Part shown: positions 1,147-62,381 of the stretch, in pieces
How positions within the stretch are numbered: the first letter of the stretch is position 1
Layout of the letters: each line of letters opens with the position of its first letter
From: Scenedesmus sp. ARA3
Taxonomy: Eukaryota > Chlorophyta > Chlorophyceae > Sphaeropleales > Scenedesmaceae
Direction of reading: 5' to 3'
NCBI GenBank assembly: GCA_004335835.1
Contig: RWJK01000996.1
Location: 1 to 64,000 of the forward strand
Length of the DNA: 64,000 nt
The notes under the pieces: model-generated
Databases searched by the model: none
Told to the model about the DNA's origin: nothing
The model's input: the letters and a program-made list of their open reading frames with translations, nothing else
Made by a program: the position numbers and the translations under genes

Positions 1147-2592
1147 CTGCTCATCTTCACATGTCCCAAAAGCCGCCTTGGCCAGGGCTGCCGCCACGAA
1201 GCGGATCTTGCTGGCCAGCGTTGGCACTGCGCTGCGGGGGTCGGGCAGCGCCAGCTGGAACACACACGAGCCAGCAGACAGGTCAGCCAGAAGCGGCAGC
1301 GGCACCTGCAGGCCCAAATCAGGGGTTGACAGCAGGCGACAGGAAGGTGGCAGCAGCATGGATTAGTGTCGTGTATATGCGAGGCACCCAGGACATGGCA
1401 ATAAATCCAGTGTGCAAGAAACACAGCTGGAACACACATGAACCCTTGGATCAATCAGCAAGCAGAGGCAGCGGCAGCTGCAGGCACAGACCAGGGCCTT
1501 GAAGCAAGTGCCAGGAAGGTGGCAGCATAAGTGACCAGTGTGATGTACACGCATGGCAGCCAGGATATGGCAGTAGAAGCCGCATGCAAGCGACACAGCT
1601 GCACTGCGCCAACGTCATTACTGTACAGGTTGTGAGTCATGCCATGCATGCCACTCAAGAGACGGCCAGCTACCAAGGCACATGCGTCCTCTCTTGGTAT
1701 ATTCTGCACCACGTTCACCTCAAGGTGCTCGGTCCCTCTGCAGGACATAAACCGAATCATGTGTGGACCCTGCAACTTTCTGTTGAAGCAATATCACACC
1801 AGGGCCTACTCCGCACCTGCAGCCTCAGAGGTCCTACATAGCTGCAGCCCGCCGTAGCGGCACTGAACCCCGTCCGGCGAGCGCTCAACCCTTGTGAATC
1901 GGTAGATCGGAGTTGAACAGCATGTGAATCGGTAAATCGGAGTTGAACACCAAAAACCCAAAGGCCTCACCTCCAGCCTCAGAGGCCCCTCGTAGCTGCA
2001 GCCCTCTGCAGCAGCGCTGAACCCCGCCCTGTCAGCAGCCAGCAGCAACCGACCCCCAGCGCCCCTGAACTGCTGCGCAAAGGCTGCCAGCTGTGCGGCC
2101 AGCGCGCCGTGCCACAGGTGCAGCAGCTCCAGCTGCATAGAGAGAGGCCGCTGCAGCAGCAGGAGTGCGTCCTCCCTGCAGCAGCAGCAGCAACAAGAGC
2201 AGCAGAGGCAGATGATGTCAGTAGTTGAGAGGTGCAGCAGCTCCAGCTGCATAGAGAGAGGCCGCTGCAGCAGCAACAGGGCGTCCTCCCTGCAGCATCA
2301 GGATCAGCAGCAGCAGCAGCAGGTGCAGGGAGGACAACAATGCTATGGCCAGGTGAACAGGTGCAGCAGGTCCAGCTGCTTGGAAAGGGGGCGCTTCAGC
2401 AGCAGGCGTGTGTCATCCCTGCAGCAGCAGCAGCAACAGGTGCAGCAGAGGAAGATGATGTCAGCAGTTGAGAGGTGCAGCAGCTCCAGCTGCATAGACA
2501 GGGAGCGCTGCAGCAGCAGCAGGGTGTCCTCCCTGCAGTAGATGCAGCAGCAGCAGCAGCAGCAGCAGCAGGGTGTCCTCCCTGCAGTAGAT

Positions 2593-2637
<45 letters not shown>

Positions 2638-5329
2638 TGGGCAGGAGGGGCAGATGATTTCATCAGATGAACAGGTGCAACAGCTCCGGCTGCAGAGAGG
2701 AGATGCAGCAGCAGCAGCAGCAGCAACAGCGGCAGCAGCGGCAGTGACGGGAGCATATGCCCTGGGAAGCTCAGAGGTGCAGCAGCTCAAGCTTCACAGA
2801 GAGTGGCCAGCTCCAGCGGCAGCCGCCGCCGCAACCCACAGCTCACCAACACAGAGCCAGCCCGCTCAACATAGCTCCTCCACTGTCAAACACCCCGCAC
2901 ACCCAAGCTGTGTCCATGCAACAACAAACACCGCCACAGTTACAAACAATGCTCACCCCTTGGCATTCTCTGCAAACTCTTTGGCTGCCCTCTCGCAGTA
3001 GTCCCGTGCAGCAGCCAGCCCCGCCCCCACATCGAGTGACAGCAGCAGCCGCCGCAGACCGCAACTCAGCCGCACAGGCTTGCGCACCAGGCCAGCAACG
3101 CGCCCGGTCATCAGCCGCTGGAAATCAAACGAAACCGCACTGCTGCTGCTGCTGTTGCCTTCTGATGAGGCGTGACCTTCGCCATTGCTGCTGGCAGCAG
3201 CAGCAGCAGCAGCTGCTGCGTCTGGTGTTTGTCCTGCTGCTGCTGCTGCCGCTGGTGCGAGGCCCTCCTCCTGAGCCAGCTGGCAGCAGGCAGCATCAAG
3301 CGCTGCCTGCCACACCCCGCAGATGCGCTCCCAAGCCGGGCTGTCTGAATGTGCCAGGTAAAACCTGCACAGGTCGTTCAGAGTCACGCTAAGCCCTGCA
3401 ACAAGGGATGCTGTTGTAGTGTTGCTGCTGCTGCTGCTGCTGCTGAGGTCCGCCGCTGTACCCCCATTGAGCGGGACACCACCAGGGTTTGGCCCTGCTG
3501 CTGCTGCTGCTGCTGCTGTTGCTGAGCCCTGGCCGGGGCTGCTGCTGAACCCTGACGGCCCAGGGACGAGGCTGTACGGTCCAGGGTTTAGCAGCAGGGC
3601 CAGGGCTTTGGCGTGTCGGGGTTCCGGCAGGTCCAGCAGCGCCCGCGCCTTCTGAGCTATGCGCAGCTCCTGTTAATACGGCAGCAGCAGCAGCAGCAGC
3701 AGTAGCATCACGCCATACGGCTAGTGTAACGTCATCCTTGTTACTGCTCCTTATGATTGGACTGCAACCGGAACAAAACCAAACCACATAGCTAGCCAAC
3801 AACAACAAGCCAAGCACTAGGTTCAATGCATTACGCAGACACTGATGTTCACCTTGTCCTTTGGAGTGTCTCCTGCGGTGCAATTTCCTCACTCACAACA
3901 TGCAGGCTACCCAGGGAGCCTAAAGCGCCTATCTTGGTTGTATCAAAGCCATGCGTTGATCCAGCATGCTCCCACCTTGACAAAGTCCCATATGCCTGCC
4001 TTTCCCCTTGGAATGTGTGTCAGATCTAGTGTCAATTCTCAAATGCAAAAACCAATTTTGTAAGATTTTGCGCACCTTGACGAAGTCCCGTATGTCTGCC
4101 TTTCCCCTAGGGATGTCAGCAGCAGTGCGTGTCAGGTTGGCTGACAGGCAGGCAGTAGGCGGCCCAGCCAGTGACACCTCCCCAGCCAGCCACACCCCTG
4201 CAGGGCCCGGCTTGCTGCTGCTGCTGCTGCTGCTGATGCCGGCTGCTGCTGCTGCTGCTGAGCTGTCCAGGATGAACTTGCCCAGCTCATGCGGCAGGCT
4301 TGTGAGCAGCAGCTTAGTGAACACCTGCAGTTGCCAACACACAACAACATGAAAGTGTGCTCTGGTAGTCCAGAACGCACTGCCACTTTGTACAGTCATT
4401 GCAACCTGCTGCTGCTGCAGTGCCTAGAAGCAGCCGGCGTTGGGGTGCCAGGCAGTCGCAGTAAATAAAAGTTCTCCATGGGTGGCATCAGGTCGGCTGC
4501 ATGCCACACTCGTACAAAGCATCAGCGTGATATAGGAGTTGTGCGGCTGCAGCTGAGGCTGCATGATCGTGAAGAACATGCTGCTGCTGCTGCTGCCGAT
4601 GCTGCGGTGCACCCTGCTATCGCTGTTGCTGCTGCTGTTGCTGCTGGCTACTCACTGATGGCAGCACCACGTTCAGCAGGCTCTTAATCAGCGTCTTGGG
4701 CAGCGGTAGGTTCGAACCCTGCACCTGGCGCTCGAGTGACAGCACCTCGAAGGACAGCCCTGCAGCAGCAGCAGCAACAGCAGCATTATGACCAGTGCGT
4801 GCCGTGCCCAGCGTGCATGTGCGGCCTGCGAGCAGTGTGCACACCGTGCTGCTGAGATGAGACCAAAATATCTCAGAGCACATGTACATGCGGCCAAGCA
4901 CAGCATCTGCTTAGAACTTTAAAAGTCTCACACCAACCAGCTTCTTGCCCACCTGCGCTCTGTCAGCGCAGCAGCGGGCTGTAGGTCAATGTGGCGCTGA
5001 CAGTCGCCTCCACCGTTCACAAAAACGCAACTGAACCACTGGCAACGCATAAAACTCAAGATTCCAGTCAGAAGGACCCCACCCAAGCACAGGCGTGAAG
5101 ACTCCTTTTGGAACCCTACAGATCCATACCTGAGCTCTGCCAGCCCAGCAGTGGGCTGTAGGTCAGTGTGGCGCTGAGGACGGCTTCTACTTCCAGCCCC
5201 AGCTGTGCTGCACGGATGTTGGGCACCTGCAGCAGACGCACAGAACCTTTCTGCTGAGCATGTTGAATTGATAAATGTCTGATGTAGCGAAGAGCAAGCA
5301 CAGCTGTGCTGCACGGATGTTGAGCACCT

Positions 5330-5363
<34 letters not shown>

Positions 5364-5728
5364 GCCCATATTCCGGTTTGGTGACAAAATTACAATACTG
5401 TACTTCAAAGACACCGTCCAATAAGGTTGAGTCCAATGATGTAGCTGAGCTGGGCGATGCAGCAGCACAAGCAAGACATCTTGCAGCCAGTAAGGTTCAT
5501 CAAAGCAGCTACACAGTCAGCATGGTCAGCATGCCTTTTACCCCTTTCCCTTCAAGTGCTCAAGTGCCAGCATCGCAGAAAGACATCACACTGCATTGTA
5601 AACGAATGGCCCACAAACCTTGGTGCCCTTCTCCCCTACCACCTCCAGCCCCTCAGCCAGCAGCATCACCACCACGCCACGCCGCCCTGCTGAGCCCTTG
5701 GCGCCAGCCACACCCCCAGCACCACCAC

Positions 5729-5761
<33 letters not shown>

Positions 5762-6288
5762 ATCCATCCCTAGCCAGCCCTCCAGCTCCTCCGTCCTCAT
5801 CTCGTGCCCATGACTCATCCAGCAGCTGCCGATCCAGCTCGCCGGTGCTGGCTGCTGCAGCTGCTGCTGCAGCAACGCCCGGGAACGGCGCCGCAGTGGT
5901 CTCAACGGAGGCCCGCGACTGAGGTGGCGTAGGTGCTGCTTTGTGTGATGTTGCTGCTGCTGCTGTGTTGGGGTCTGCTGTGCTGATGCGCGGCAGGTCT
6001 GCAGCAGCGTCAGGTGGTGCTGTGGGTGTGCCTGTGGTTGCTGCGCAGCCACCTGTGCTGCTTGCTGCATGGGAGACAGGAAGAGGCGTGCTGCTGTCTG
6101 GACTCGGCGGCAACTGCTGCTGCTGCTGCTGCTGTTGCTGTTTTACTTCTACGCTTGGGTGTTCAGAAGCAGGTGCAACAGATGGTTCTGATGGGTCTCC
6201 AGCTGCTGTCTCTGCTGTCGGAACTGGAAGTGCTGCTGCTGCTGCTGCTGGTGGTGGTGGCGGTTCTGGTCGTGGCTCCCCTGGTGGT

Positions 6289-6330
<42 letters not shown>

Positions 6331-6503
6331 TGCATGGCCTGTTGTTGGTGCAGCAGCTGGTACTGCTCCCACTGCTGCGATGCCTGTTGCTGCTCCGCGT
6401 GCTGCTGCTGATGCAGGTGCTCGTCCAGCTTGCTGCTGATCTCGGACAGCTTTGTTTTGAAGCCGGCCTTGCCCTCCTCCATCAGCACCTTGGAGTCTGC
6501 AGT

Positions 6504-12900: not shown

Positions 12901-13629
12901 TGCAGCAGCCGCCGAGTGTCCTGCAGCCACGTGTGCAGCTGCGCGTGCTTGCACTGCTATGTCCAGTGCGCTGTGCTACTGCAGCTGTCTCCTAGCAACA
13001 GCTGGCACACCTGGCAGCTGGCAGCAGGTTTGTCACACACACCCCTCTCTCACTCCTCACCTGCAGCACCACCAGCTGCGTCTCATGCTTGCTGAGACCC
13101 GCAGACCTCACTGCTAGCAACAGCTGCACCTAATAACTGCAAGCACACATTGATAAGCAATGCCAGCTGCAATACACTCCCTCTCACCTGCAGAACCACC
13201 AGCTGGGTTTCATGTATGCTCCGCTCCTCAGGCCACACTGCAGGGCCGCAAGCCAGCTGTGCTGCTAGCTGTTGCAGCCGCATTTCCAGCTGCACGTGCT
13301 TGCACTGCTGTGTCCAGTGCGCTGTGCTGCTGTATGCATCCTACTGCTGCAGCTGCAGCTCCTAGCACAGCTGCCGCCAGCTGGCAGCTGCAAGCATGTT
13401 TGTGCTCTATGTTTGCATTATCCTCTGCAAGCCCTCGCCTCACTCCTCACCTGCAGCACCACCAGCTGTGTCTCATGTATGCTCCGCTCCTCAGGCCGCA
13501 CTGTCGAGTCACCAGCCAGCTGTGCTACTAGCTGCTGCAGCTGCGTGTCCAGCTGCTCCAGCTTGCACTGCAGGCCTGACAGCTGCTCCCGCAAGATAGC
13601 AACATCGCTGCCTACAGGCGCATCAGCAT

Positions 13630-16268: not shown

Positions 16269-19200
16269 ATGACCTCAACACACAAGCTACATGAAGATGA
16301 TCTTCTACAGCTTCGCGCAGACGAGTTCACGCAGAGGTGGGCTGAACGGAAGAGGCACATCGCTGGTCCTGTCAGCCATTGGGCCTCCGGGCAGACGAAA
16401 CAGCAAGTAGGAGCCGCACAACTGCTGATCAGTTTTCACGCAGTGCAGCAGTACTGCGCACGGGCCCCCGTGGGTCCATGGGACCAAACGGTTCAGGCCT
16501 GAGACTGCGCCTGTATTGGTGATCTGTTGACTGATATCGTAGACATGACCATTATTCAGTTCGTCGATACGATAGCAGCAGCAGGTGCACTCCTACCCCG
16601 AGTGCCCTGAGCCAACACCGCTGAGCTCACCATCTTTTGGACGCAACCTGCTGCACTGCAGGTACAAGGTCGTTTCGAAGTTGGGAAGTGGAGCTTTCGC
16701 GGATGTCCTGCGAGTCAAGGACCTCAGGGGCGGGAGGGACTGTGCGGTCAAGGTGCTGCGCCCTGCAGCAGCACACCCAGCAGGCCTGCAGCCTGAGGTG
16801 GCGCTGTTCAGGGAGGCACGTGCACTGAAGCACGCCAAGCACCCGTGAGTACAGCAGCAGCGCAGCAGCACAGCAGCCGCAGCAACAGCTGTTTTGCAGT
16901 ACAGCTTTCGGCTGCCAGTGCCCTGTCCGGATCCCTGCACGACACCCTCGCACACCACACCCACAACAGCAGCTGCACATCTGCAGGAAGAAGTGTTCAT
17001 CAATACAAAACTCACTAGATATCTCAGCGTCCAACACCATGTTGCCTGGCGCTGTGCCCTGCACTGTCTCCCAATGCTGCTTGCAGGAACATTGTGGGGC
17101 TTGTCAGCGTGCTGCGTGTGCCGGCCCTGGGCAGCATCGGCCTGAGCAAGCGCAGCAGCATCCTGAGGGGCCTGCCTGGCGAGGGCTCCGGCAGCAGCAG
17201 AAGCAGCGGCAGCAGCAGCCAGCATGGCTCCTGCTGGGGGCTGATGCTGGAATATGTGCAGGTGAGGCCTGAGGCAGCAGCAGCAGCAGCGGGCCGCACT
17301 GGTTCTGCGCCTACAGCTGCTGTCCTCAGCGTCATACTTGTGACCTGCGGAGCCTCAGCAACACTTCCATCATCAGCCCCGCTTGCCACGGAACACCATC
17401 ATGTCAGCCTGTGTCTGCATTGGGCGCCTGTCAGCATGCGTGTGTCCCACTGCAACCCACTTGTTCCTGGCGGCTACTCTCGTGCCACATTGCTGCATCA
17501 CGCAGACAAACTTACTTTCAAGATACCCTTGCATTGCGATGTGGACGGGCAAATGTTCAGGTGCTTGACAACTGCGGCCAACGTATTCGCGTGTTCATGC
17601 CGCTGCCTTTCCTCTGCCCTGGTCCTTTGTCTCGTCATGGCTCTGCCTGCAGGACGGCTCGCTGGCTCAGGTGCTGTACAAGCAGATGGTCAACCCCTTC
17701 CCCCGGGCATACAGCGACACAGCAGCGCTGACCTGGGCGGTGGACCTGGCCTCCGCAGTGGCGCACCTGCACGGGCTGAGCCCATGCATCATCCACAGGT
17801 GTGGCACTTTGTGATGTTTAAGCTTGTGGTTGTGGTTGATATGTGGTTGTGTAGCAGAGATTTGGTTGGCTGGTATAAATCCTGGCATTGTCCACTGCTT
17901 CGATCTAACACCTGTTCTTGCAGCAGGACAGCTGTTTGTGGCATACGTGTCGGCACAGCCGTGCATTTCTGCGCACAATATCAAACGGCCTCCAGCTCTG
18001 CGTGTTTGGCCAGCTTTTACCAAACTTTGGCCCGAGTTTGACCATGCTGTGCTGCGCCTGCTGCTGCAGGGACCTCAAGCTGGAGAACATCCTCATGCAG
18101 AAGCCCGAAGCACAGCCTGCTGCCCCAGCCGGCCGCAAGCTGCCCCTTGCAAAGATCAGCGACTTTGGCCTGCACGTGGTGGGTGGCTAGGACAGCGGCA
18201 ATAGTTTGAGTTGACAGCAGCAGCAGCTGTATGCCGATGAGAGACTGCCAAGCTCAGCGACTTTGGGGTGCCTGCAGCAGCTGCTGTGTATTGATGAGTG
18301 ACTGCAGATATCAACAACTTCGGGCATTGCGTCACACATTCCAGCACATACCGCATGCACCTGCAGGGAGTTGTAGGGTGCCTGATGAATGCTTGTGCTG
18401 CTGCTGCTGCTGCTGCTGCAGATGCTGGAGACGCCGCCCTGCCCCTACCTCATCACATCAAACGGCGGTTGCCCGGTGCTGCTCTTTGGCCCCGAGCTGC
18501 AGCAGCAGCAGCAGCAAGACGGCACGGACGCTGGCAAGGCATGCTCTGCAGCACAGTCCAGCAGTGCTGCCGCAAGCGTCTCTGCAGGCTCTGCTGCTTC
18601 CGGCAGCTTCACCGCAGAGGTGGCCGCCTTTGCAGGAGACAGCTGCAGCGAGCCGCAGCTGCTGCTGCTGCAGAAGCCTTGTAGCTCGTGCTGCGGCAGC
18701 TGCAACAGCAGCAGCAGCAGTAGCAGCAAGGCTGCAAATGACGCCGTTGCAGCAGCTGATGGTGGTACAGCTGGCACGGCGACAGGTAAGCCGCCACAGC
18801 AGCCAGCTGTACGCAGGCTTGCAAAGCATGTGGCATTCAGCGCGAGTACGCGATCGCTGTATGCCGCGCAGAATGACCCACCTGACGCAGCCGATGCAGA
18901 CAACGCTGCAGCAGTATCAGACCAGGCGAGGGCAGCAGCAAACGATGCTGCTGCTGCGCGCAGTGCCTTCAGAGCCAGAGCCAGCCTGGAGACCGAGTCG
19001 GATCCTCTGCCGCAGCTGCAGCTGCCACGCGCTATGGAGCAGCAGCGGCAGGAGTGGCAGTCGCTGACTACAAGTGCACTCAGGCGCATGTCACTGGACA
19101 GCATGGCTAGTAGTGGCCCCGGCTGCGGCATTCCTCTGGCACTGCAGCTGCAAGGTGGCGGCAGCAGCAGCAGGCCTGGATCTGCAGCAGGCTCTACTGC

Positions 19201-21604
19201 TGCTGCTGGCTTTGCGCGCGTGTCTGTGCCGATGTCTGCGCTGCAGCGGGCATCACCATCTTCAGCAGCAGCGGCAGCAGGTGGTGACTGTGGCAGCGAC
19301 AGCGGTGTGGGGTTCAGGGCTGTGGGTGTGGCAGGCGGCGAGTGTTATGACGATGTCACTGACATACTGGCTGCTGCCAACATGGAGCGTGATTATGAGG
19401 TGAGCGCGTGGGGCGGTTGGGTTGTGCTGTTTTGGCTGCATGCCAGTTTATGCTGTGCGGGTGTTGCAGCAGCACCATGACAGCTGCAAATGACAGGCTC
19501 ACTAGTTTGCAAAATCTTGCAGGCTGCAGAAACTAATTTGCATGTGCTGCGGTTGCTGCTGCTGCTGCAGGTCAGCATGTCCGAGGCTCACGACAGGGCT
19601 GCCAGCAGCAGCAGCTGGTCACGCGCCCCTTCCGTCGCCAGCAGCCTGCATGCAGGCAGCAGCAGCCGCCCTCCAACGCCCAGAAGCGTCCGCGCAAACA
19701 CTGCCGCTGCTGCTGCTGCGGGTGGGGTTGACCATCTGACGCTGGCTGATGTGGGCAGCATCAGCGGCCGCTGCTGGGATGGTGTGCCGGCCACCACTGC
19801 TGCCTCCATGCTGTGGGAGGACATGATGGAGGTGAGCATTCCAGGATGAGCTTTGGAGATGTTGATTTTAAAGTGACCAGTGCTTCATGCCGGCCACCAC
19901 TGCTGCCTCCATGCTGTGGGAGGACATGATGGAGGTGAGCATTCCAGGATGAGCTTTGGTGATGTTGATTTTAAAGTGACCAGTGCTTCATGCCGGCCAC
20001 AACTGCAGCCTCCATGCTGTGGGAGGACATGATGGAGGTGAGGGGCGCCTGGCATGAATGAAATGGCTGTGATTCCTTGAAGTCGCCATTGTTTGTGGGC
20101 TGCCGTCTGACATGCACACAGTGCATCACTGCAAAGGAGCCTGATGTCAGCGGCTGCTGGCCAACACACACATGCACACAGTGCAGTACAGCGTCCATGC
20201 TGTGGGAGGACATGATGGAGGTGAGGGGCTGCCAAGGCTGTTGTTTTAGTGTGGTCGTTTTTCAGCTGAACTTGCTTTTATGGTGGAATGCGCCCATTCC
20301 CATTCTGGAGCGCGAGGGAGAGCTTGTTCTAGGGTGGAGTGGAGGCTGTTGTCGTTGCTCACTTGCTCTCAAGGCGTCATTGTTCAGGGGCGCCTCCATG
20401 CTGTGGGAGGACATGATGGAGGTGAGAGGGGCATAAAGAATGAAGGGAAGATCCCATATCTATGCAGAGATGCGCATGTTGGCCAGGGTACTGCATTGTG
20501 TAACAGTGTCTGCTGCTGCCAGCTGCTTGCAGGACACTGACTGCCAGCAGCCGCTGCTTCAGGCCCCACCACCCTGCCTGTGCATCAGCACGACTTAATC
20601 CTGCTGACATCAGGCTCCTTTGCCTTGCTCAAAGCCCCATGTGCTGCTGCACCTGCTGCTTCTGCAGGACTCTGGCTGCCAGCAGCTGCTGCGTTAGCCC
20701 CACCACCCTGCCTTTGCATCAGCACCACTGCATCCTGCTGACATCAGGCTCCTTTGCCTTGCTCAAAGCCCCATGTGCTGCTGCACCTGCTGCTTTCGCA
20801 GGACGATGACTGCCAGGAGCTGCTTGACGGTGCCGGCCACCCCGGCCTGTGGATTAGCACCGCTGCTTTTGCTTTTCATTGAACTCGGTTCCCTGTTGTA
20901 AGCCCTGTGTCCTGCACCTGCTGCTTCTGCAGGACAATGACTGCCAGGAGCTGCTGGACGGCCCTGGACAACCCGGCTGTACCTCAAGTCGGCTGCATAC
21001 TGCTAGCATCAGGCTCGTATGCCTGGTTTAAGCCCTGTGTACTGCTGCACCTTCTTTTGCTTTTGCAGGACGATGACTGCCAGGAGCTGCTTGATGGCCC
21101 CGGCCACCCCGGCTGCGCCTCAGGGCCGCTGGCGTATGACCTAACGCAGCACACGGGATCCTACATGTACATGGCCCCGGTGAGTCCTAAACCATTGTTG
21201 TTCAAGAGGTGCAGGTGTTGTATTTGGTCATAGGGGTCACGGCCTACACACCTGAATGTTTCAGGGCCGCTGGCATATGACCTCATGCAGCTCACGGGAT
21301 CCTAGATGTACATGGCCGCGGTGGAAGGCTGATGAACTGTTTTGGGGTGCAGGTTTGATTGAGCGCCTAGGGGTTCAGGGTGTCGGCGCATGCATGTTCG
21401 TGGGCCGTGATGCTTGACGTGAAGCAGCACAGGGGCTCCTACATTTACATGGCCTTGGTTTGTAGGCCCAATGTCAGGGCAGTGTGCTGAGACAATGGGC
21501 TGCGCCCGTATTTCGTACAAACCAGCTGACTAAGCGGGTGCATCGCGGGCTCCTCCACAGCCTTAAAGACCGGTGTTGTGACATCTATCTATTCTTGACT
21601 GCAT

Positions 21605-21636
<32 letters not shown>

Positions 21637-22377
21637 TTGCAGGAGATATACCGCGGCGAGCCCTACAACGAGTCCGTGGACGTGTTCAGCCTGGGGGTCA
21701 TCCTCTACGAGCTCTTCAGCCGCTCACTACTGCTGTACACCCAAACCCCGGCCTCAAAACCCTCGGACACCGAGGCATATGCAGCCCGCGTGGCAGGCGG
21801 CTTCCGGCCTCCGCGGCCGGTGAATATGCATGCGGGTGTGTGGGGTGTCATTGAGCGTTGCTGGGCTGCTGACCCGACTGCAAGGCCGGCTGCTGCTTGG
21901 GTGCTGCAGCAGCTGCAGCAGCTGCTGCAGGCGGAGGAGGCGGCAGCAGCAGCAGCGGAGCGGCGCAAGAGCAGCTCGGGCATTGCCGGTGCAATCAGCA
22001 AGCTGCGCGGAGCTGGCAGGCGCAGCATGGATGCCTATGCAGCAGCGAGGCTGGAAAGGAGGGGAGGCAGCACCATTGACGAGGATGCAGCTACAGGGGC
22101 TGTGGCAGCGGCCCATGGTTTGGTTGCTGCTGATGCATCCAATGAAGACGACAGCGGTGCAGCGGCAGGTGCCGGATCTGCCGGTGCTGCAGGGGACAGC
22201 GGAGACGGCAAAGCAACTGTGGTTGCTGTTGCTGCTTGCACAGGAGCTGAGTGCTTGCAGGACAAGCCAGCGCCTGCTGCATGCAGCGCTGCTGGCATGG
22301 CTGCAGGCAGCGGCACAGCGATGAGGAGACCGCATGGCAAGAAGGCGGAGCCAGCATGCGGTTGCGTGATCTGCTGA
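16269..22377 (+). CDS. Protein kinase (TKL-like) with giant activation-segment insertion and C-terminal CaaX-like motif
   Basis: Exons: (16269-16406 tentative), 16585-16844, 17087-17261, 17653-17798, 18070-18178, 18422-19399, 19571-19831, 21069-21179, 21643-22377; all phases agree. Without the tentative first exon there are 924 codons; with it about 970 aa. Kinase motifs: glycine loop KLGSGAFADV, lysine in CAVKVL, hinge MLEYVQ, catalytic HRDLKLEN (split across an intron), DFG in KISDFGLHV, MAPE followed by SVDVFSLGVILYEL, and the subdomain XI tryptophan-arginine region. Between DFG and APE lie about 450 Ala/Ser/Gln-rich residues instead of the usual 20-35. The tail has HGKK and ends CGCVIC, a possible prenylation/palmitoylation signal that would place the kinase at membranes. 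The GSYMYMAPE style fits the algal TKL (Raf-like) group; substrate unknown. Introns contain arrays of duplicated splice junctions. Confidence 0.85.
19785..20425 (+). repeat. Five-copy donor-side array in kinase intron
   Basis: The exon end SMLWEDMME followed by gtgag is present five times, with donor boundaries at 19831, 19934, 20037, 20220 and 20421. The first three lie at a 103-bp period and share the following intron sequence; the last two have diverged spacers. Every copy retains a consensus donor, so alternative use would be silent at the protein level only for the first. Confidence 0.93.
20528..21179 (+). repeat. Five-copy acceptor-side array in kinase intron
   Basis: The acceptor and exon start (tgcag|GACgATGACTGCCAGGAG) occur five times with boundaries at 20533, 20668, 20802, 20933 and 21069, spacing 135, 134, 131 and 136 bp. 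Only the last continues to the donor at 21179. The intervening 70 bp of each unit is a copy of the intron 3' end (GCCCCATGTGCTGCTGCACC). Confidence 0.93.
21120..21460 (+). repeat. Donor-side copies of the MAPE exon end
   Basis: The exon end encoding TGSYMYMAP (donor at 21179) is followed by two decayed copies with boundaries near 21320 and 21457. The first copy has TAG in place of the TAC codon; the second reads GSYIYMAL. Spacing is about 140 bp. Confidence 0.85.
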
Positions 22378-49769: not shown

Positions 49770-49882
49770 TCTGGCGCCGGCGCGCCCGTGCTGAGCGCTG
49801 GGCTGGCGTTCAGCGTGCTGCCGCCCGACAGGGCCGCCCCAACAGCAGGCAGCAGCAGCAGCAGCAGCAGCGCGGCCGGTGA
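47000..49882 (+). CDS. gag: Retrotransposon Gag, 960 aa
   Basis: The start is the first ATG inside the element (47000); the frame is also open further 5'. Residues 1-280 are Pro/Gln-rich. About 280-500 form a helical capsid-like region (TPVEAFVRRVKRTMQRMQEH; LEELSRVLRPRTDLQEL; VRRMLRFFPARMQNRLPLLM) followed by a Gln/Glu coil. An Arg/Gly-rich stretch of roughly 50 residues (GGRDGGRDGGRGRGRGG) seems to take the nucleic-acid-binding role, as no CCHC knuckle is present. Residues about 605-750 are 22-residue Ser/Ala/Gly repeats. The tail is helical (LAHIQQVLAKALISINLQEL). The frame ends in Gln runs encoded by CAG, where the overlapping protease frame is already open (+1 relative). Confidence 0.85.
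48820..49262 (+). repeat. 66-bp coding repeats in gag
   Basis: Six to seven imperfect 66-bp units, each coding about 22 residues on the pattern GSSSAAAAPGSSGVAAS. The period is a multiple of three and the frame is kept, unlike the noncoding satellites in this window, so it is under coding constraint or recent. Confidence 0.85.
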
Positions 49883-50489: not shown

Positions 50490-50548
50490 GTGCAGCCCGT
50501 GTCTGCGTGATATGTCCTTTTGTCCCCCGTTTTACCGTTTGTTAATAT

Positions 50549-51637
50549 ATGCCACAACCCACCAATGTGAGCCCTGGTGTTTCGAGTGAGGAGGTGCAGG
50601 GGGCGGCGGCGCCGTCGCCTGGTCCGCCTGCGTCTGCAGAGCGCCTGGCAGCGCTGCTGCAGGCGCTGCGCCTGCTGCCTGAGCAGTATGCGCATTTGAG
50701 TTCTGGTCAGTTTGAGCAGTTGCGGGTACTGTTATGTGTCTACCATGACGTGTTTGCTTTGGATGATGAGATTATTGGGTGTGTGCCGGTTGAGAAAGGC
50801 GTTTTCCATCGTATTCCGACGCCTGGTGATTTGCGGCCTGTGCGACAGCGTGGTTACAACCTGTCGCAGCACGAGAGGCTGTTCTTGAAGTGCGAGGTGC
50901 AGCGGCTGCTGCGCTTAGGTGTCATCCGGCCTAGCAGTAGTCCTTGGATGTCTCCCGTTGTGATGGTTAAAAAGCCAAATGGCAAGTTGCGTGTGACGAT
51001 TGACTACAGAGTTGTGAACAAACATACTATTGCTGATCCCTACCCCTTGCCGACTGTGGATGATATGCATGCTTCCATGGCTGGCTGCACTATGTGGAGC
51101 CAGCTTGATGCTGTTACTGGGTTTTGGCAGGTGCCTGTGGCTGAGGAGGATGTTGCCAAGACGGGCTTCACCACCCCCTTCGGCAATTTTGGCTGGACTC
51201 GCATGCCTATGGGTATGGTATCCTCGCCTTCGACCTTTCAGCGGCTGATGAATGATATGTTGGCAGGTGTGGAGGGTGCACGTACGTATGTGGATGACAC
51301 ATTCTGTTTCACGCGTGGTTTTGAGGCGCAGTTGGAGGTGCTGCGTCAGGTCTTGGCTCGAGTGCGTGACTATGGGTTGTTGTTGCAGCCCTTCAAATGC
51401 TCGTTCTGTGTGGAGCGTGTGGTGTGTTTGGGTCACGTGGTGGATGCGTCGGGTGTGCGTCCTGTAGGTGACAAGGTGGCAGCGATTGTGCAACTGCCCC
51501 AGCCCCGTACTGTTCGAGCTCTCAAAGGCTTTTTGGGTAGGATGGGTTTTAATAGAAAGTTTATGAAAGACTATGCACGCCTTGCGGCACCCCTGGATGC
51601 GATGACGAGGCGTGGCGTGGCGTTTCAGGTGGAGTGA
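50549..51637 (+). CDS. pol: Reverse transcriptase, 362 aa
   Basis: Ty3/Gypsy RT with all key motifs: KPNGKLRVTIDYRVVNK, catalytic Asp in SQLDAVTGFWQ, MPMGMVSSPSTFQRLMN, YVDD, and FKCSFCVERVVCLGHVV. ATG at 50549 has an in-frame TAA two codons upstream, so it is separated from the protease frame by a real stop. It ends at a TGA just where the RNase H linker begins in the +1 frame. Codon use is richer in T at third positions than gag-pro. Confidence 0.93.
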   Translation: MPQPTNVSPGVSSEEVQGAAAPSPGPPASAERLAALLQALRLLPEQYAHLSSGQFEQLRVLLCVYHDVFALDDEIIGCVPVEKGVFHRIPTPGDLRPVRQRGYNLSQHERLFLKCEVQRLLRLGVIRPSSSPWMSPVVMVKKPNGKLRVTIDYRVVNKHTIADPYPLPTVDDMHASMAGCTMWSQLDAVTGFWQVPVAEEDVAKTGFTTPFGNFGWTRMPMGMVSSPSTFQRLMNDMLAGVEGARTYVDDTFCFTRGFEAQLEVLRQVLARVRDYGLLLQPFKCSFCVERVVCLGHVVDASGVRPVGDKVAAIVQLPQPRTVRALKGFLGRMGFNRKFMKDYARLAAPLDAMTRRGVAFQVE

Positions 51638-53861
51638 GGAGGCAGTTGCTGCTTTTGAAGCTATGAAGCAGGCGCTGTGTTCTGCGCCTGTGCTCGCGCT
51701 GCCAGACTGGAGTTTACCGTTTATTTTGACGACAGATTGGTCTTGTGGCGCCATTGGCGCGGTGTTGTCTCAGCTGGATCCTGTGTCAGGTGATGAGCAC
51801 CCGGTTGCGTTTGCCTCCAGGTCCTTGACCTCAGCAGAGCGCAACTATGGTGCTACTGAGGGTGAGTGCCTCGCAGTGAAGTGGGCTGTTGACAAGTTTA
51901 GATACTATCTGCATGGCCGTCGTTCCACTTTGCGTACTGACCATCAGGCGCTGACGTGGCTTGATTCTTCACGTTTCAGCAACTCTAAGCTGGAACGCTG
52001 GGCTATGGCCCTGCAGGAATTTGACTTCAGTGTGGAGTACATAAAGGGCGAGACCAACGTGGTGGCTGATCACCTGTCACGCTCTTGCAGTTGTGTTGTG
52101 TTGCACTGCAACTATGCAGCAGCTAAGGTGCCTTTGTTGACTCGTCGGCTGCGCCGCGCACAAGCTGTAGCAGCGGCCGGCGCTGCTGTGCAGGTGTACG
52201 CGGCTGCAGGGTCAGCTTGGCCTCAGCAGGCGCGTCGACAGGCAGATTTTGACAGCGTGGTGTGTGAAGTTTGTTGCGACCCTGGCGGTGGCAACAACAT
52301 GGCGATTTGTTCTGGATGCAGTAAGTGCTTTCACTTACGGTGTGTTGTACCTGCTATGTCCACTGTGCCCAGTGGCGACTGGTACTGCCCAGGTTGCGAT
52401 CCTGTGTTTACAAATCTAGATGAACTGCGTGATGATGCAACAGTCTTGTCTTACCGTGAGGGTGATCCTTACGAAGATCCGCTACTGTTGGCGTTTGTGC
52501 GCAGCTCAGGTGATGCAGCTCTGCTTGCAGGACTGCCCTGTCGGCGTGCTGCAGTTATGCCGAAGCGTGCGGCGGCCCTGCGGCCGCACCCTAGACTGCC
52601 TGACTGGTTGGTTGTGTGTGTCTCTAGGCGTGGGGTGTTTCGATGGGTTACGTGTCCTCCTGTGGAGTACAGGTGGGATATCATCCGCTGTATGCATGAT
52701 GCTCTTGGGCATGCCGGTGTGCAGCAGACTTGTGTGTACATGCAGCAATATTTTCATTGGCGGGGGCTGCGTGCGGATGTGGCTTCTTTGGTGCGCTGCT
52801 GTGACAATTGTCAGCGACGGAAGCTGGCTATGCTGGCATTGCCGCCGTTGCAGCCGCCTGTTGTGCATGGTCCGTTTGAACATGGGCACATTGACTTGTG
52901 TGGGCCCTTTCCAGCTCCTGTTGTGAGTGTGCATGGCCGCTTGTCTGTTCCAGACAATCCGCTCAAGGCACATGTTGTGATCATGGTGGACTACTTCAGC
53001 AAAGCAGCAGAATTCGAGATTGTTTATGACAAGTCGGCGGCTGCTGTGGCTAAGGGGTTCTACTACAGTTGGATTTGCAGGTACTTCGTGCCTGCGTATG
53101 TTACCAGTGATAATGGCTCTGAATTCGAAAGCGAGTTTGTGCATATGCTGTCCCGCTTGGGTGTGCAACATATCCAGACCACAGCAGCGCATCCCGCCAG
53201 TAACGGCGCTGTTGGACGTCTGGTGAAGTCGTTCAAAACATTGTTGTGTACGCATGTAAATGCGCATCCGCAGCATTGGGTGCAGAGCTTGCCTGTTATC
53301 AGGATGCAGTACTGGTCGCGCGTGCATGCGGCTCTGGGCATGTCCCCGCATCAGATGGTGTTTGGCAGGCAGCCTCGCCCTGCGCTACCTGGTAGCAATG
53401 ACTTGCTGTTGGCGGCTGCGCAGGCTGGCGGTCAGGAGTCATGTGGGCTCCCTCCTGTGGTTTCTGTGGTGCCTGATGAGTGTCTCAATCCTTTTGAGCA
53501 TGTTGCCAATCTGCAGCAGCAGCTTATGGAGCACGATGCTGGAGTGTTTGATCGTATTAGGATGCAGTTCTACAAAAATGCACGACAATGGCCGCTGCGG
53601 CATGACACCCGCAAAGGCAGGTTGTGTAGTGAGCCGCTGCAGGTTGGTGACTGGGTGTTGGAGATGCTTTCTGGTCCTGTGCCTGTCTTGCAGGATCAGG
53701 TTCAAGGTCCTTTTCTCGTAGTTGGTTTGCGTGCTGATGATCAGCAGGTTGCGGTTTTGTCTACGGGCGGCACAGCATTCAAGGATCCTGTGGTGTTCAA
53801 ACGTCACGTCAGCAACCTGGCTCGGTATTATTCCAAGCAGCAGTTGCAGCGTGGGCGTTGA
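51612..53861 (+). CDS. pol: RNase H - PHD finger - integrase polyprotein, about 749 aa
   Basis: Continues pol in the +1 frame; the linker FRWSEEAVAAFEAMK is normal for Gypsy elements, so one base separates it from the RT frame. RNase H: Asp in TTDWSCGAIG, Glu in GATEGECLAV, Asp in RTDHQALTWL and in VVADHLS. A C4HC3 PHD finger follows at about 52260-52405 (CEVC, CSGC, HLRC, CPGC with WY before the last pair). Integrase: zinc domain H-x4-H and CDNC, Asp in HIDLCGPF, Asp in TSDNGSEF; the expected Glu is Gly (GGA at 53214-53216, in NGAVGR). The C-terminus carries a GPF module (QGPFLVVG) and no chromodomain. Confidence 0.93.
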   Translation: MAWRFRWSEEAVAAFEAMKQALCSAPVLALPDWSLPFILTTDWSCGAIGAVLSQLDPVSGDEHPVAFASRSLTSAERNYGATEGECLAVKWAVDKFRYYLHGRRSTLRTDHQALTWLDSSRFSNSKLERWAMALQEFDFSVEYIKGETNVVADHLSRSCSCVVLHCNYAAAKVPLLTRRLRRAQAVAAAGAAVQVYAAAGSAWPQQARRQADFDSVVCEVCCDPGGGNNMAICSGCSKCFHLRCVVPAMSTVPSGDWYCPGCDPVFTNLDELRDDATVLSYREGDPYEDPLLLAFVRSSGDAALLAGLPCRRAAVMPKRAAALRPHPRLPDWLVVCVSRRGVFRWVTCPPVEYRWDIIRCMHDALGHAGVQQTCVYMQQYFHWRGLRADVASLVRCCDNCQRRKLAMLALPPLQPPVVHGPFEHGHIDLCGPFPAPVVSVHGRLSVPDNPLKAHVVIMVDYFSKAAEFEIVYDKSAAAVAKGFYYSWICRYFVPAYVTSDNGSEFESEFVHMLSRLGVQHIQTTAAHPASNGAVGRLVKSFKTLLCTHVNAHPQHWVQSLPVIRMQYWSRVHAALGMSPHQMVFGRQPRPALPGSNDLLLAAAQAGGQESCGLPPVVSVVPDECLNPFEHVANLQQQLMEHDAGVFDRIRMQFYKNARQWPLRHDTRKGRLCSEPLQVGDWVLEMLSGPVPVLQDQVQGPFLVVGLRADDQQVAVLSTGGTAFKDPVVFKRHVSNLARYYSKQQLQRGR

Positions 53862-57732: not shown

Positions 57733-60700
57733 CACTTTGTGGTGCAGCCGCCAGCTCCAGGTGGATCGCACGAGAAGACAAACGTGCGCCTGCGAGGGTC
57801 GTTATATTTGCTTGTAACAAGTGTTATGTTCATCAGGTCCGGCAGCTTCCCGCCCTGCAGCATACACTCCGCAATAACATCTCCAACCTTGAACCCTCCA
57901 GGCCTGCTGCAAGTGGGTTGCTTCACGCTGGCTGGCGGCTGTGGCACCACCCACATGCGGCCTAGTGGCATCGGCCCGCGGTTCCAAAACCCGTGGTTTA
58001 GGCTGCAGACCTTGTGATTTCCGGATCCGGGCACTTTTGGCCTGAAGCAGCGGGAGGCGGGTGCCACGCCGGCTTTGCTGCGGGCAAAAGCCATTACCGA
58101 GCTGCCAGTTAGGCAGCAGGATAGCGGCACTGTTATCTCAAGGGTTCCTGTTACTGCTGCGGCAGGAGCAGCAGTCAGCTCCACAGTAGAAGCTGCACTG
58201 CCAGCAGCAGCTGTGGCGTTGGCGGACACTGCATCTGTTCCTACAGCTGCTGCTGCCATGGCAGGTGCGCTGTTGAGGGCGCTGACGCCGTTGCAAGTTG
58301 CAGCAATGGAGGCCTTCACGTTCCACTTGCCATTCACAAAGCCAAAGTTTCCCCCGCATGTGACGGTGAGCTTGCCGGTAGTCTCGCTGGACGCTGCAAG
58401 CAGTAAATAGTGAACAGAACACCGCAGCAGCAAGATTATGACCATCATTGTGCGTCTGATGACAGGAAGTTGACAGCATAATAAGTTGACTGAGTTAGGC
58501 GAGGCATCACTGCTGCTTCTACTTTGCTGTTCACCCTGCAACAGACTGGCCCACACCGCTGCTATACGTTGTGCTTTGCGCCTTTTCAGCCAGGTTTAGC
58601 AAAGCTGTGATATGCAGATATGTCTGAACAGCACGTGGCCGACCACCTTCCAGCGCCAAACACACTGCTGTGTGTCAAACATGTGTCTCAAACACACTGC
58701 TGTGTGTCAAACATGTGTCTCAAACATACTGCTGTGTGTCAAACATGTGTGTCAAACATACCACTGTGTGTCAAGCACACCACTGTGTGAGCAGCCACCC
58801 ACATTCCAGGGTCGACTTGCAGTCAGTCGACAGCGCCGCCAGCGTGCCAGGTGCCACCACCTGGCGCAGCAACGCAATCCTGCTGCTGCTGCCGCTCCTG
58901 CTATTATGTCGTACACAGCAGCCACTAATCCGTCACCATGATGGTGCTACAGCAGAACGCTATGCTGCCGTCACTCATCATCTAGTGCTGCTTCATGTAA
59001 ATACCACACGCAACTACCTCCCTCTCGGTATTCAAATACTTTGTACATCACAGCCACCCACCTTCCAATGTCGACTTGCAGTCAGTCGACAGCGCCGCCA
59101 GCGTGCCAGGTGCCACCACCTGCCCCAACGGCTTGATAGCAGCCACCTGTGCTCCATTGCCCGCATTGTCCACCCAGTACTCAAACTGCGCTGTTGCGGT
59201 TCGAGAACCCAAGCACACTGGCACAGGCTCCAGGTGCCTCAGGTTGACAATTGGCCTTGCTTTGACGCTGATGCGCGTGGTTACGGGTGTCGTGGCAAGC
59301 TCCTGTTTGCAGACTGACACTGCACCTTGCTCCATCAGGTAGGCTGCAAGGGTGATGTCGTAGGTGCCGGAGGCAAAGCCGGCAGCGTCGTTTGTGCTGC
59401 AGGTGACGGTTACGCCTGTTGTAGACAGCGGCAGTTAACAACAGCAACAGCAACAGCAGCAGCAGCAGCAGCAGCATCACAAGCAGTGGTGACGTCGTAG
59501 GTGCCCGAGGCAAAGCCAGCAGCGTCGTTTGTGCTGCAGGTGACGGTCACGCCTGTTGTACACAGCAGCGATTAGCAGCAGCGGCAGCAGCGGCAGCAGC
59601 AGCAGTGGTGAGGCCCGCAACAAGGTGTAAGGCAGAGTGCTGCGCCTGGTAAGCCGTGATCATGCAACACATGGGCAGCTGCTGCTGTGGTGCCAATTCT
59701 CTGCTCCCTCTGCTGCTGGCAGCAACCTTGCATTGCTGCCAAACCTGCATGCATGTTTTGCAACGCAGCAGCTGCTACCAGAGCGCCTGCCCAAGCCGGA
59801 GTATACTACATCCCACTTTGTCTGCAAATGGCACCTACCGGAGCCTCCCGCTCACCCACCTGCCCCCGACTCAGCAGCGCTGCACATGCTCCTGTCCTGG
59901 CCATTGACCGTCACAGTGTACCCCATCGCGAGCCCGCGCACGCTCTCGCTCTTCTCATACGGGAAGCTCAGCAAAAACTGCTTGCTGCCGAAGCACAGCT
60001 CGGCATCTTGCGCCTTGGTGAGCCGGATGCTTGGGGGCCCGATGACGACTGCGGTTGTGGAGATGCTTCTGAACACGCCACCGCAGCCAGGCATGCCGTT
60101 GTCGAAAACAGCTGTGACCTGCAGTGAATGCGGGCCCTCGCTGAAGGAGCCCTGGCAGGCCACAGCGACCACGCCAGACTGTGTGAAGCCGTCCATGGAG
60201 CGCTCCACTGTCATTTTGTTATTTTTGTAACGGGTACGACAGCGATGCCGGCAGCCAGGTGCGAGGGTCATTGCAGCAGTGACGGCAGCAGAACAGTATG
60301 CAGAACTGTCAGCGCATATGGGGTTTTTGGACTGATGCATGTCACTACTGCTGCTGCGGCTGCAGGGATGTCTCGGCCCCTCTCACCAGTTGCGTTACAG
60401 GTCAGCTGCTGCTGCTGCTGACACTTCTGCTGCCACTCCTGATGCTGATGGGCCTACACCACCCTAGGTTGCTTCTTGATTGCAGCGGCTCCTGCTGCCA
60501 TCCCTGCCGCTAACGTCTGTTGCTGCTACCGCAGCTGCTGATGCTGTGCTGCCTGCAGCCACTCACTCACAACCTCCGGCTCGCAGCTGCTGCTGCTGCT
60601 GCTGCGCTGGCTGCTAATGCTGCTGCTGCTGCTGTTCCTGCAGCCAATCACTCACAACCTCCGGCTCGCAGCAGCTGCTGCTGCTGCTGCTGCGCTGGCT

Positions 60701-62381
60701 CCTACTGCTCCTGCTGCTGCAACCATTGCTGCAAATTGGAACTCACCTACGACCTCCGGCTCGCAGCTGCTGGCCTCTCCATCAAAGAAAGTCTCAAAGG
60801 TGGGCGCAGTGTCGCCGTTGCCTGTCATGCTGGCTGTGTATGTGAGGTTGGTCACGATGCGGGTGCTGGAGCCGTCCAGGGAGCCCTGGCACTGGTCAGC
60901 CGGCTTCTGGGCTTCAATTGAGAGGCTGGGGGGCTGCTGGCAGGACACGTCGTCAGCAAGCACTCCTGCAGGAGGGACATGTTAACACACATGTGGATGT
61001 TAGTATGTGCATAAACGGCAGGCCAGCAAGCTACATATCATGTGCCTCAAGAGCAAAGAGAGAGGCTGGGGGGCTGCTGGCAGGACACATCGTCAGCAGT
61101 CACCCCTGCAGGAGGGACATGTTGACACACATGTGGGTGTTAGTGTGTGCAGGCATGCAAGGTAGATATCATGTGCTGGAGGCGAGAGGCTGGGATGCTG
61201 CTGGCAGGACACGTCGTCAGCAGTCACCCCTGCAGGAGGGGCACACACGTGTGGGTGTTAATGTATGCGGGCATGCAAGCTAGATATCATGTGCTTCAAG
61301 CGAGAGGTTGGACGGCTGCTGGCAGGACACGTCGTCAGCAATCACCCCTGCACTGCAGGAGGGGCACGTTTGTGTGCATGATGGTTAGGGCCTAATGGGG
61401 CATGCCTGATGTGTGCTGCGAGTGGCATGTGTCAGCAGCAGTGTGTGAGCAGCAGTGTGAGCAGCAGTGTGAGCAGCAGAGTGAGCAGCAGCGACAGCTG
61501 TGTAAGGCAGCTGCTGCAGGAGAGCATCTGCATGCATGCAAGCATCCATGCTGCATCTGTCGCATGTTATGCCGTGTGTTAGTGAGTGTGGCTGATATGA
61601 GAAGAAGATGACACAGTGCGATGATGTTGTGCACTGCAGAGGTGCACTGCATGCCTGTATACTTTCCCAGCGTAAGCTGCAGCACAGTGCAGCTGTGCTG
61701 CATGGCATGGCAGCGGCTCTCTGCACGCCAGTGCAATGCAGTGCAATGCTGCTGCACCGCCAATGGGCTATGCGAGCACAACCCGTGAGGCACGCCAGTG
61801 AGGAGCTGCACAATGATATACAATTGCATAGAGGCAACTGGCGGCCTTCCCTTTCCTAGCTGCTGCGGATGCAAAATACCAGCAGTGCTGCTGCTGCTGC
61901 CGCTGCTGCTGCTGCTGCTGCTGATGTGGCCAAGCCTCAGCAGCACTTCACAGCAGATGCTGCAGCTCGCGCTGCCTTCACCTTAGTTGCATACACCACA
62001 ACCAAACGTGCATATGCAAGGGTGTAGGACCCTACCAGAACTACCCACAATGCTGTGGTGCCACGTACCTGGCAAGGTGGCATACGTCAGGAGCAGGAAT
62101 ACCAGCTGCAGCACTACGCTGTATTTTCGTAGACTGTGCACGCCGATCTTTTGCTGCTGTCGCTTCGGCCTGGGCTGGTTGCTGCACGGAGTTTCAACAG
62201 CCTGCGTGGGGCAGCGGCAGGCGCGCCCAGCAGCAGACGTGGCCGCTGCATAACCATCTCCAGTGCCCATTGAAGTTTTATTTAACTTTGTGGTGTCCAC
62301 TGGCTTTGCTAAGCGGCTCAGCGCACGAACGCTCTCTCCAGGAGCTGCAACAGCCGCTTCAGACCGCCGCTGTAATGCCAA
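57239..62381 (-). CDS. Signal-anchor protein with repeated disulfide-type beta modules, 692 aa, six exons
   Basis: Exons 62381-62069, 60965-60747, 60207-59860, 59415-59062, 58393-57736, 57425-57239; every phase matches. Residues 1-86 are polar and basic near the end (RPKRQQQK); 87-104 (KYSVVLQLVFLLLTY) form a single membrane segment, so a type II or signal-anchor topology with the rest outside is likely. The outside part repeats a pattern of Gly, V-x-V-x-C, Phe, Gly, aromatic, hydrophobic (VVAVACQGSFSEGPHSLQV; VTVTCSTNDAAGFASGTYD; LTVTCGGNFGFVNGKWNV), suggesting at least three Ig-like sandwiches with paired cysteines. An Ala-rich spacer at about 380-420 and a Cys/Lys pair near the end (AKCKCKDMYW) follow. 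Family unknown; a cell-wall or surface role is only an inference. Adjoining introns hold junction copies. Confidence 0.72.
57686..57730. repeat. (CTG)n microsatellite
   Basis: About 14 CTG units on the plus strand, immediately downstream of the minus-strand donor at 57736, so CAG in the gene's sense. This is the opposite polarity to most intronic triplets in the window. Confidence 0.9.
58657..58800. repeat. 32-bp intronic minisatellite
   Basis: CAAACACACTGCTGTGTGTC begins at 58657, 58689 and 58721, a 32-bp period, with decayed units to about 58800. It ends exactly at a donor-side copy of the exon end at 59062 (copy boundary about 58803). Confidence 0.88.
59340..59560 (-). repeat. Acceptor-side copy of exon 59062-59415
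   Basis: The exon start coding GVTVTCSTNDAAGFASGTYD has a second copy at about 59490-59555 that keeps both the acceptor (caacag) and the reading frame for 23 codons, differing by a few bases. A sense-strand CTG run lies between the two. Confidence 0.85.
60540..60790 (-). repeat. Donor-side copies of exon 60747-60965
   Basis: The exon end coding SSCEPEVV with its donor is present at 60747 and again near 60650 and 60565 (plus-strand word ACAACCTCCGGCTCGCAGC). Each copy is preceded by CAG triplets in the gene's sense. All keep a gtgagt donor. Confidence 0.82.
60920..61360 (-). repeat. Four-copy acceptor-side array
   Basis: The exon start coding GVLADDVSCQQPPSLS (acceptor ctcctgcag at 60965) has copies with boundaries at 61105, 61229 and 61347, steps of 140, 124 and 118 bp. 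The unit also carries intron sequence (GGACATGTT.ACACACATGTGG). Confidence 0.9.

What the first reader, a model, noticed from the sequence alone, without database searches (positions are those of the whole stretch)
1147..62381. Splice junctions are the centres of tandem duplication in every long multi-exon gene
In four unrelated genes (minus 1-15.5 kb, plus kinase, minus 30-35 kb, minus 57-62 kb) I chained exons by phase and then found extra copies of the exon edges in the neighbouring introns. Copies of 'intron end + exon start' always lie upstream of the exon and copies of 'exon end + intron start' always lie downstream, mostly 100-140 bp apart. That geometry is what repeated tandem duplication across a splice junction would leave. 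Many copies keep usable AG or GT. It looks like a general way of growing introns while creating decoy or alternative splice sites. I know of no named description of this as a genome-wide process.
Basis: partly seen in the sequence, partly recalled or inferred. Interest (0 to 1): 0.88.

Follow-up and report, generated by a model that had tools for sequence, protein, structure and literature searches.

The report
Copied exon edges fill algal introns
In this green alga long introns carry repeated copies of the ends of their neighbouring exons, complete with working-looking splice signals, which suggests how introns grow and raises the question of how the cell ignores or uses the extra splice sites.

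Summary
The geometry is real. With gene models fitted to homologous proteins I found 112 exon-edge copies in six genes, two of them in the window: 46 exon starts upstream, 44 exon ends downstream, 4 whole exons, 18 internal, none reversed. Six further genes add 55 copies with the same polarity. Intron length fits 318 bp plus 122 bp per copy (rho 0.79); 22 of 23 introns of 600 bp or more carry copies. Not every gene has them: chaperonin zeta has none, and the 30-35 kb window gene was not reproduced.

The mechanism offered is half right. The freshest case is a plain tandem duplication across a junction (kinase intron 7, 103 bp, 98%). But in 47 of 80 copies the intron half is no longer recognisable, while the exon half is still about 90% identical and hardly depends on flank loss. 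Flank-less copies keep pyrimidine tract and AG, or a donor consensus. Neutral decay does not give this; selection and homogenisation are not separated. T. obliquus protein models, aligned here, fit splicing at several such copies.

The parts
16269..22374 (+). protein kinase gene (9 exons, 8 introns) used as anchor; PF07714/PF00069
   Evidence: spliced alignment to T. obliquus P0241; Pfam on its last exon
19571..19831 (+). kinase exon 7, true donor at 19831|19832
19888..19934 (+). copy 1 of exon 7 end plus GTGAG, 100% over 47 bp; part of a 103-bp junction-spanning tandem duplication (19785-20042, 98%)
19991..20037 (+). copy 2 of exon 7 end plus GTGAG, 95.7% over 47 bp
20184..20220 (+). copy 3 of exon 7 end plus GTGAG, 89% over 37 bp, flank unrelated
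20392..20421 (+). copy 4 of exon 7 end plus GTGAG, 100% over 30 bp, flank unrelated
20802..20865 (+). copy of exon 8 start (84%), preceded by pyrimidine tract and CAG
20933..20995 (+). copy of exon 8 start (83%), preceded by pyrimidine tract and CAG
21069..21179 (+). kinase exon 8 (true edges)
21261..21320 (+). copy of exon 8 end (90%), followed by GTGGA
21415..21454 (+). shorter copy of exon 8 end (85%)
18246..18271 (+). 26-bp partial copy near the end of exon 5 (85%), weak
1147..6449 (-). minus-strand gene, 8 exons fitted: 6449-5619, 5226-5130, 4759-4656, 4324-4146, 3571-3483, 3395-2957, 2175-1971, 1305-1147 (low-complexity stretches less certain; protein fitted to residue 681 of 1143)
   Evidence: spliced alignment to Scenedesmus sp. 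NREL 46B-D3 protein P0244
2230..2581 (-). four copies of the start of exon 2175-1971, each after CAG: 2230-2289, 2357-2418, 2473-2532, 2553-2581
2583..2822 (-). four weaker partial copies (70-84%) of the same exon start
1817..1882 (-). copy of the end of exon 2175-1971 (79%), followed by GTGCG
1017..1105 (-). copy of the end of exon 1305-1147 (81%), followed by GTGAG; beyond the fitted part of the gene
1424..1476 (-). copy of the start of exon 1305-1147 (75%)
4953..5000 (-). copy of the end of exon 5226-5130 (90%), followed by GTGGG
5301..5327 (-). copy of the start of exon 5226-5130 (27 bp, 96%), after CAG
59483..59552 (-). copy of the start of gene-finder exon 59415-59120, 91%
   Evidence: exon from my gene finder
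13061..13304 (-). downstream copies of gene-finder exon 13567-13451: a whole-length one (13188-13304, 85%) and an end copy (13061-13113, 81%), both followed by GTGAG
   Evidence: exon from my gene finder

Best explanation
Introns of this alga (T. obliquus or a very close strain) lengthen by repeated short tandem duplications, mostly 90-190 bp, that span a splice junction. Shown: spare exon starts with acceptors lie upstream of the true exon, spare exon ends with donors downstream; the freshest duplication is intact across the junction, others keep the exon part and the splice signal while the rest of the intron part has drifted to varying degrees; intron length tracks copy number. Inferred: such duplications survive because the true exon always keeps the innermost acceptor-donor pair, so exon definition still picks it; duplications inside the exon are mostly purged. 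Inferred: the copies are then kept exon-like and splice-competent by a second force, most likely selection on spare sites that the splicing machinery really sees (for example stepwise or nested removal of long introns, or regulated unproductive splicing), with homogenisation from the functional exon as the alternative.
For: Polarity 90 of 90 edge copies and 55 of 55 by halves in six more genes. Intron length = 318 + 122 bp per copy, rho 0.79, 64 introns. Annotation-free: 7 of 33 local repeats in the window end exactly at GT[GA][AC]G in both copies, 1 at another offset. Fresh case in kinase intron 7. Repeat coverage 0.51-0.54 on the last 30 exon bases against 0.19-0.20 at +10 to +49 (37 introns of three genes, zeta left out). 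Flank-lost start copies (n 15): pyrimidine 0.69, true acceptors 0.69, other AGs of the same zone 0.53, zone background 0.59. End copies: 38 of 45 GTs fit GT[AG]NG, nearby other GTs 18 of 274. Exon/copy differences fall on third codon positions in 270 of 405 (three genes, gapless copies). T. obliquus models aligned here fit three end-copy donors and one start-copy acceptor, plus a whole-exon copy whose choice among near-identical copies is uncertain.
Against: No RNA reads seen. Spare acceptors are weaker than true ones by the weight matrix (2.47 against 4.36, p 0.006, though the matrix was trained on true sites of four of the six genes). No cassette-exon signature: best acceptor near end copies 5.0 against 5.4 in control windows, best donor after start copies 2.1 against 3.8. 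Used as exon extensions, 89 of 93 would break the frame or add a stop, so strong spare sites look costly. Third-position excess is partly expected because the true exon itself changes mostly silently; copy-lineage singletons are less extreme (52 third of 95). Copy-copy pairs with alignable flanks show only a mild difference (flank 0.148, exon part 0.092, only pairs passing a flank score). Flank-lost start copies number only 15. The acceptor edge (CAG) is much less sharp than the donor edge in the annotation-free test: 5 of 33 in the window at offset 0 against up to 3 elsewhere.
Confidence: 0.6

Rival explanations
1. Plain tandem duplication across junctions followed by neutral decay; junctions stand out only because exon halves decay on one branch.
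For: Fresh and intermediate duplications exist; polarity follows by necessity; slower pair decay of exon halves lets junction copies stay visible longer.
Against: Exon identity hardly depends on flank loss (rho 0.15). Simulated neutral copies with lost flank have exon identity 75 +/- 6 with 3% at 90 or more; 28 observed average 90.5. Pyrimidine tracts persist without sequence homology. Few intron-only repeats at 85% or more.
Confidence: 0.15
2. Concerted evolution: recombination or gene conversion between the true exon edge and its copies keeps the exon half alike, and homology ends at the splice site because intron flanks have drifted.
For: Explains sharp similarity edges, exon identity nearly independent of flank, retained CAG and GTGAG inside the homology block.
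Against: No patchiness of mismatches in 52 copies (Fisher p 0.34). Does not explain pyrimidine tracts kept outside the homology block.
Confidence: 0.25
3. Copies are alternative exons that make proteins with short in-frame repeats.
For: Five T. obliquus chaperonin records carry four such repeats and align to the copies; third-position excess; 11 of 15 strong donors after start copies are in phase.
Against: No general acceptor before end copies (8 of 34 in phase) and weaker donors than control after start copies. The repeat-bearing records are listed only from annotated-protein sources, and the canonical alpha and gamma proteins from more sources.
Confidence: 0.1
4. A dispersed intron-borne element (introner-like) inserts at junctions.
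For: Many introns affected.
Against: Copies match the adjacent exon; among 2016 pairs of the 64 introns 21 share a hit that is not low-complexity, and the longest of these are pieces of copied chaperonin exons or CTG-rich; kinase intron 7, the one intron searched genome-wide, matches only itself and its own exon edge (simple repeats skipped).
Confidence: 0.02
5. Assembly error.
For: Draft assembly of 1567 contigs; one copy abuts a run of N.
Against: T. obliquus protein records contain peptides of the same copies; copies differ in sequence and mostly at third positions.
Confidence: 0.03

Closest known systems
Tandem genomic duplication model of intron gain (review PMC3443670, passages seen)
   Same: Short tandem duplication in a gene that copies splice-signal sequence and is hidden by splicing.
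   Different: There an exonic AGGT segment is duplicated and a new intron appears between the copies; here existing junctions are duplicated and existing introns lengthen.
Potato RdRp case, duplicated 3' intron side plus 5' exon side (PMC4974935, passages seen)
   Same: A duplication of intron end plus exon start carrying tract, AG and exon start.
   Different: Single event that made a new intron and inserted exon; here recurrent arrays, both acceptor and donor sides, in many genes, and the spare copy stays intronic.
Tandem exon duplication, mutually exclusive exons (recalled)
   Same: Whole-exon copies occur (chaperonin alpha exon 13, 90 bp).
   Different: 90 of 112 copies are partial edges, 4 whole.
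Decoy exons in intron retention, e.g. OGT (PMC12017769, search listing only)
   Same: Intronic sites that look like real splice sites.
   Different: As I recall them, individual regulatory exons, not defined by copying of the neighbouring exon edge.
Introners (recalled)
   Same: Large-scale intron change in green algae.
   Different: No dispersed family among 64 introns.
Recursive or nested splicing (recalled)
   Same: Would use intronic splice sites to remove a long intron stepwise without altering the mRNA.
   Different: Not tested here.

Membership tests
Tandem genomic duplication intron gain | short tandem duplication inside a gene carrying splice signals | tested here: met
   kinase intron 7, 103-bp period, 98%
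Tandem genomic duplication intron gain | creates a new intron from duplicated exonic sequence | tested here: not met
   copies sit inside existing introns between true exons
Tandem genomic duplication intron gain | intron absent at that position in relatives | not testable with these tools
   no genome of a relative held
Tandem exon duplication | whole exon with both splice sites copied | tested here: not met
   4 of 112 copies whole
Introner | many similar copies across unrelated introns | tested here: not met
   21 of 2016 intron pairs share a hit that is not low-complexity, longest ones copied exon pieces or CTG-rich; one intron searched genome-wide
Minisatellite expansion in introns | repeat unit independent of exon position | tested here: not met
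   copies end at exon edges
Decoy exon / regulated unproductive splicing | sites bound or used in vivo | not testable with these tools
   no RNA data; protein models only
Nested or recursive splicing | splicing intermediates joining intronic sites | not testable with these tools
   no RNA data

The most novel reading that the evidence does not exclude
Arrays of spare exon edges are working parts: end copies near the 5' side and start copies near the 3' side of long introns pair with each other first, so that long introns are removed in nested steps while the outermost true pair is joined last. Intron growth by junction duplication thus supplies its own splicing aid, and selection keeps each spare edge exon-like.
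Probability: 0.22. Interest if true: 0.92.

Novelty: new variant of a known kind. Interest (0 to 1): 0.78.

Why it matters
How introns lengthen is often put down to transposons; here, in six genes, length above about 320 bp goes with counted copies of exon edges. It gives a natural experiment on how a cell picks the true splice site among near-identical spares, a test bed for exon definition, and a warning for gene annotation in this alga: spare edges already appear in protein records as in-frame repeats.

Tried and rejected
Tried: (a) junction copies as random tandem duplications uniform along the gene: disfavoured, repeat pairs at 85% or more are 52 exon-edge to 5 intron-only. (b) Copies as cassette exons: no acceptor or in-phase signal for end copies (8 of 34 in phase); for start copies 11 of 15 strong donors are in phase, but only 15 of 44 have one and donors are weaker than control. 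(c) In-frame exon extension: 4 of 93 open and in frame. (d) Conversion by mosaicism: no signal. (e) Selection on copies from codon positions: suggestive only, since changes in the true exon can be misassigned to copies. (f) A simple gene finder: on known genes it found 24 of 24 junctions of zeta with 30 predicted and 19 of 24 of epsilon with 64 predicted, and it strung the window into 151 and 129 exons; I used it to pick pieces for one protein search and to test 15 picked exons, 5 of which gave copies (one of the 15 was entered with a shortened start). (g) Papers: nine searches, seen as listings, showed no description of genome-wide junction-copy arrays; two of them returned nothing and one a single unrelated paper. 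Passages of four papers were read.

In counts, 18 of 112 copies that reach neither exon edge were kept as 'internal'; all 8 upstream ones are nearer the exon start and all 10 downstream ones nearer the exon end (listing). Of the 112, one lies beyond the fitted gene. One end copy at a gene end was skipped. Hits overlapping fitted exons or exon cores were dropped before counting. The gamma model stops at residue 481 of 558 because the contig ends. Subunit names of the chaperonin loci are mine from sequence.

Full report
What the window is. It is contig C697 of an 87.3-Mb, 1567-contig genome. The top protein matches are T. obliquus: chaperonin alpha at 99% over the aligned stretch, the window kinase at 100%, and epsilon at 85% against a rough chain that held non-coding residues. 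Spliced alignments then reproduce the T. obliquus proteins almost letter for letter. I therefore take it as T. obliquus or a very close strain. A published comparison gives T. obliquus a mean intron of 462 bp and 15.7% coding, against mean introns of 230-302 bp in four other green algae (PMC5966456, passages seen).

Gene models. I wrote a spliced protein-to-DNA aligner and fitted T. obliquus proteins to chaperonin epsilon, zeta, alpha and gamma and to the window kinase, and a Scenedesmus protein to the minus gene at 6449-1147: 64 introns in six genes.

The copies. Blasting each exon against its surroundings gave 112 copies: 46 exon starts upstream, 44 exon ends downstream, 4 whole exons, 18 internal, none reversed (details). 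Epsilon, alpha and gamma supply 90, the window genes 22. Edge copies are 25-100 bp long, median 57. In six more genes, with 36 exon cores taken from profile matches, 23 cores gave 55 copies, 31 from end halves downstream and 24 from start halves upstream, none otherwise. In profile matches alone, partial second copies of exon starts upstream and exon ends downstream are already visible in tRNA synthetase loci. Zeta, with introns of 120-401 bp, shows no local repeat at the threshold used.

Chance and selectivity. Adjacent introns: 111 plus, 5 minus hits in 128 exon-intron pairs; same gene, not adjacent: 6 and 4 in 650; other genes: 111 and 94 in 3702. Without annotation, 7 of 33 local repeats in the window end exactly with a donor consensus in both copies and 1 does so at another offset; in nine other loci the reverse-strand donor appears 10 times at the first three offsets and 8 times over the other 27 offsets, 92 repeats. 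The acceptor edge is less sharp in that test.

Intron growth. Introns below 300 bp: 1 of 19 has a copy; 600 bp and above: 22 of 23. A line of 318 bp + 122 bp per copy fits, rho 0.79, p 1e-14. Copies themselves cover 18% of intron bases; I infer that much of the rest of each unit is the drifted intron half. Of 94 spacings between neighbouring copies 83 lie at 90-189 bp.

What is copied and what is kept. In the first alignments most copies were 85-100% identical on the exon side while the intron side looked random beyond CAG or GTGCG, with some exceptions. Over 37 introns of three genes, repeat coverage falls from 0.51-0.54 on the last 30 exon bases to 0.19-0.20 at +10 to +49, and rises again where copies sit; at acceptors it falls from 0.49-0.52 to 0.23-0.30. 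Yet flanks retain faint similarity: of 80 copies 33 exceed the 95th and 20 the 99th percentile of a null of unrelated junctions, p 4e-19, and where flanks align they differ at 16.8% against 7.4% in the exon part (true edge to copy), 14.8% against 9.2% between copies. So the birth event is most likely duplication across the junction. The youngest case is kinase intron 7, where the duplicated stretch is 98% alike throughout.

Why plain decay fails. Exon identity hardly falls with flank loss: 92.7% in 20 copies with clear flank homology, 90.5% in 28 without. A neutral simulation of my own gives 75% for the latter. Flank-less start copies (n 15) keep a tract of pyrimidines (0.69; true acceptors 0.69; other AGs of the same zone 0.53, p 1e-4; zone background 0.59), with a position profile like that of true acceptors. 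End copies keep donor consensus in 38 of 45, sometimes by a different but equally good donor. Differences fall at third codon positions in 270 of 405 cases, a share that drops from 0.73 in the most similar class to 0.54 in the least, with the caveat on misassignment. By weight matrix the spare acceptors are weaker than true ones, p 0.006.

What keeps them. Cassette use, in-frame extension and patchy conversion found no general support. T. obliquus protein records, aligned here, fit splicing at end-copy donors in alpha, gamma and epsilon and at a start copy in gamma. Selection on sites that the splicing machinery sees, such as nested removal of long introns, fits the retained tracts and donors best but is inference; homogenisation fits the exon half. 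I leave both open.

Known or new. Duplication of an exonic AGGT segment as a source of new introns is described as established (PMC3443670, passages), and a single potato case duplicated an intron end with an exon start (PMC4974935, passages). No dispersed element explains the copies: 21 of 2016 intron pairs share a hit that is not low-complexity, the longest being copied exon pieces or CTG-rich. Recurrent arrays at both sides of existing introns, in 11 of 12 genes examined, tracking intron length in six, with retained spare splice sites, I did not find described in the nine searches made.

Noticed in passing
46817-53861 +: LTR-retrotransposon-like coding region: reverse transcriptase, RNase H, integrase zinc-binding and core, and a PHD finger in two open frames from 50546 on; terminal repeats not looked for.
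   Followed up: no
38754-39308 and 43622-44002 +: Two neighbouring open frames share a nearly identical stretch (AELQARHAALSSDHSALLGRLADVTRKWQATVATNQQLHQANGSLQALLAEAQQQL), which looks like a local gene duplication.
   Followed up: no
26601-27827: 64-bp minisatellite, about 18 units in two blocks.
   Followed up: no
11040-11541: 56-bp array, 9 units, 90%.
   Followed up: no
L036/L037 (contig C1492), chaperonin alpha exon 13: Five copies of a 90-bp exon (30 codons): four whole or nearly whole, one partial; 28 of 30 differences at third positions: candidate interchangeable exons.
   Followed up: partly
18476-19246 +: One T. obliquus kinase model (P0242) treats 771 bp of exon 6 as an intron, another (P0241) as coding.
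   Followed up: partly
introns of six genes: Copy spacing has a floor near 90 bp (one of 94 is shorter) and gathers at 120-130 and 170-190; why smaller duplications are missing is unexplained.
   Followed up: partly
whole window: CAG/CTG tracts are common and several acceptors follow a CTG run.
   Followed up: no
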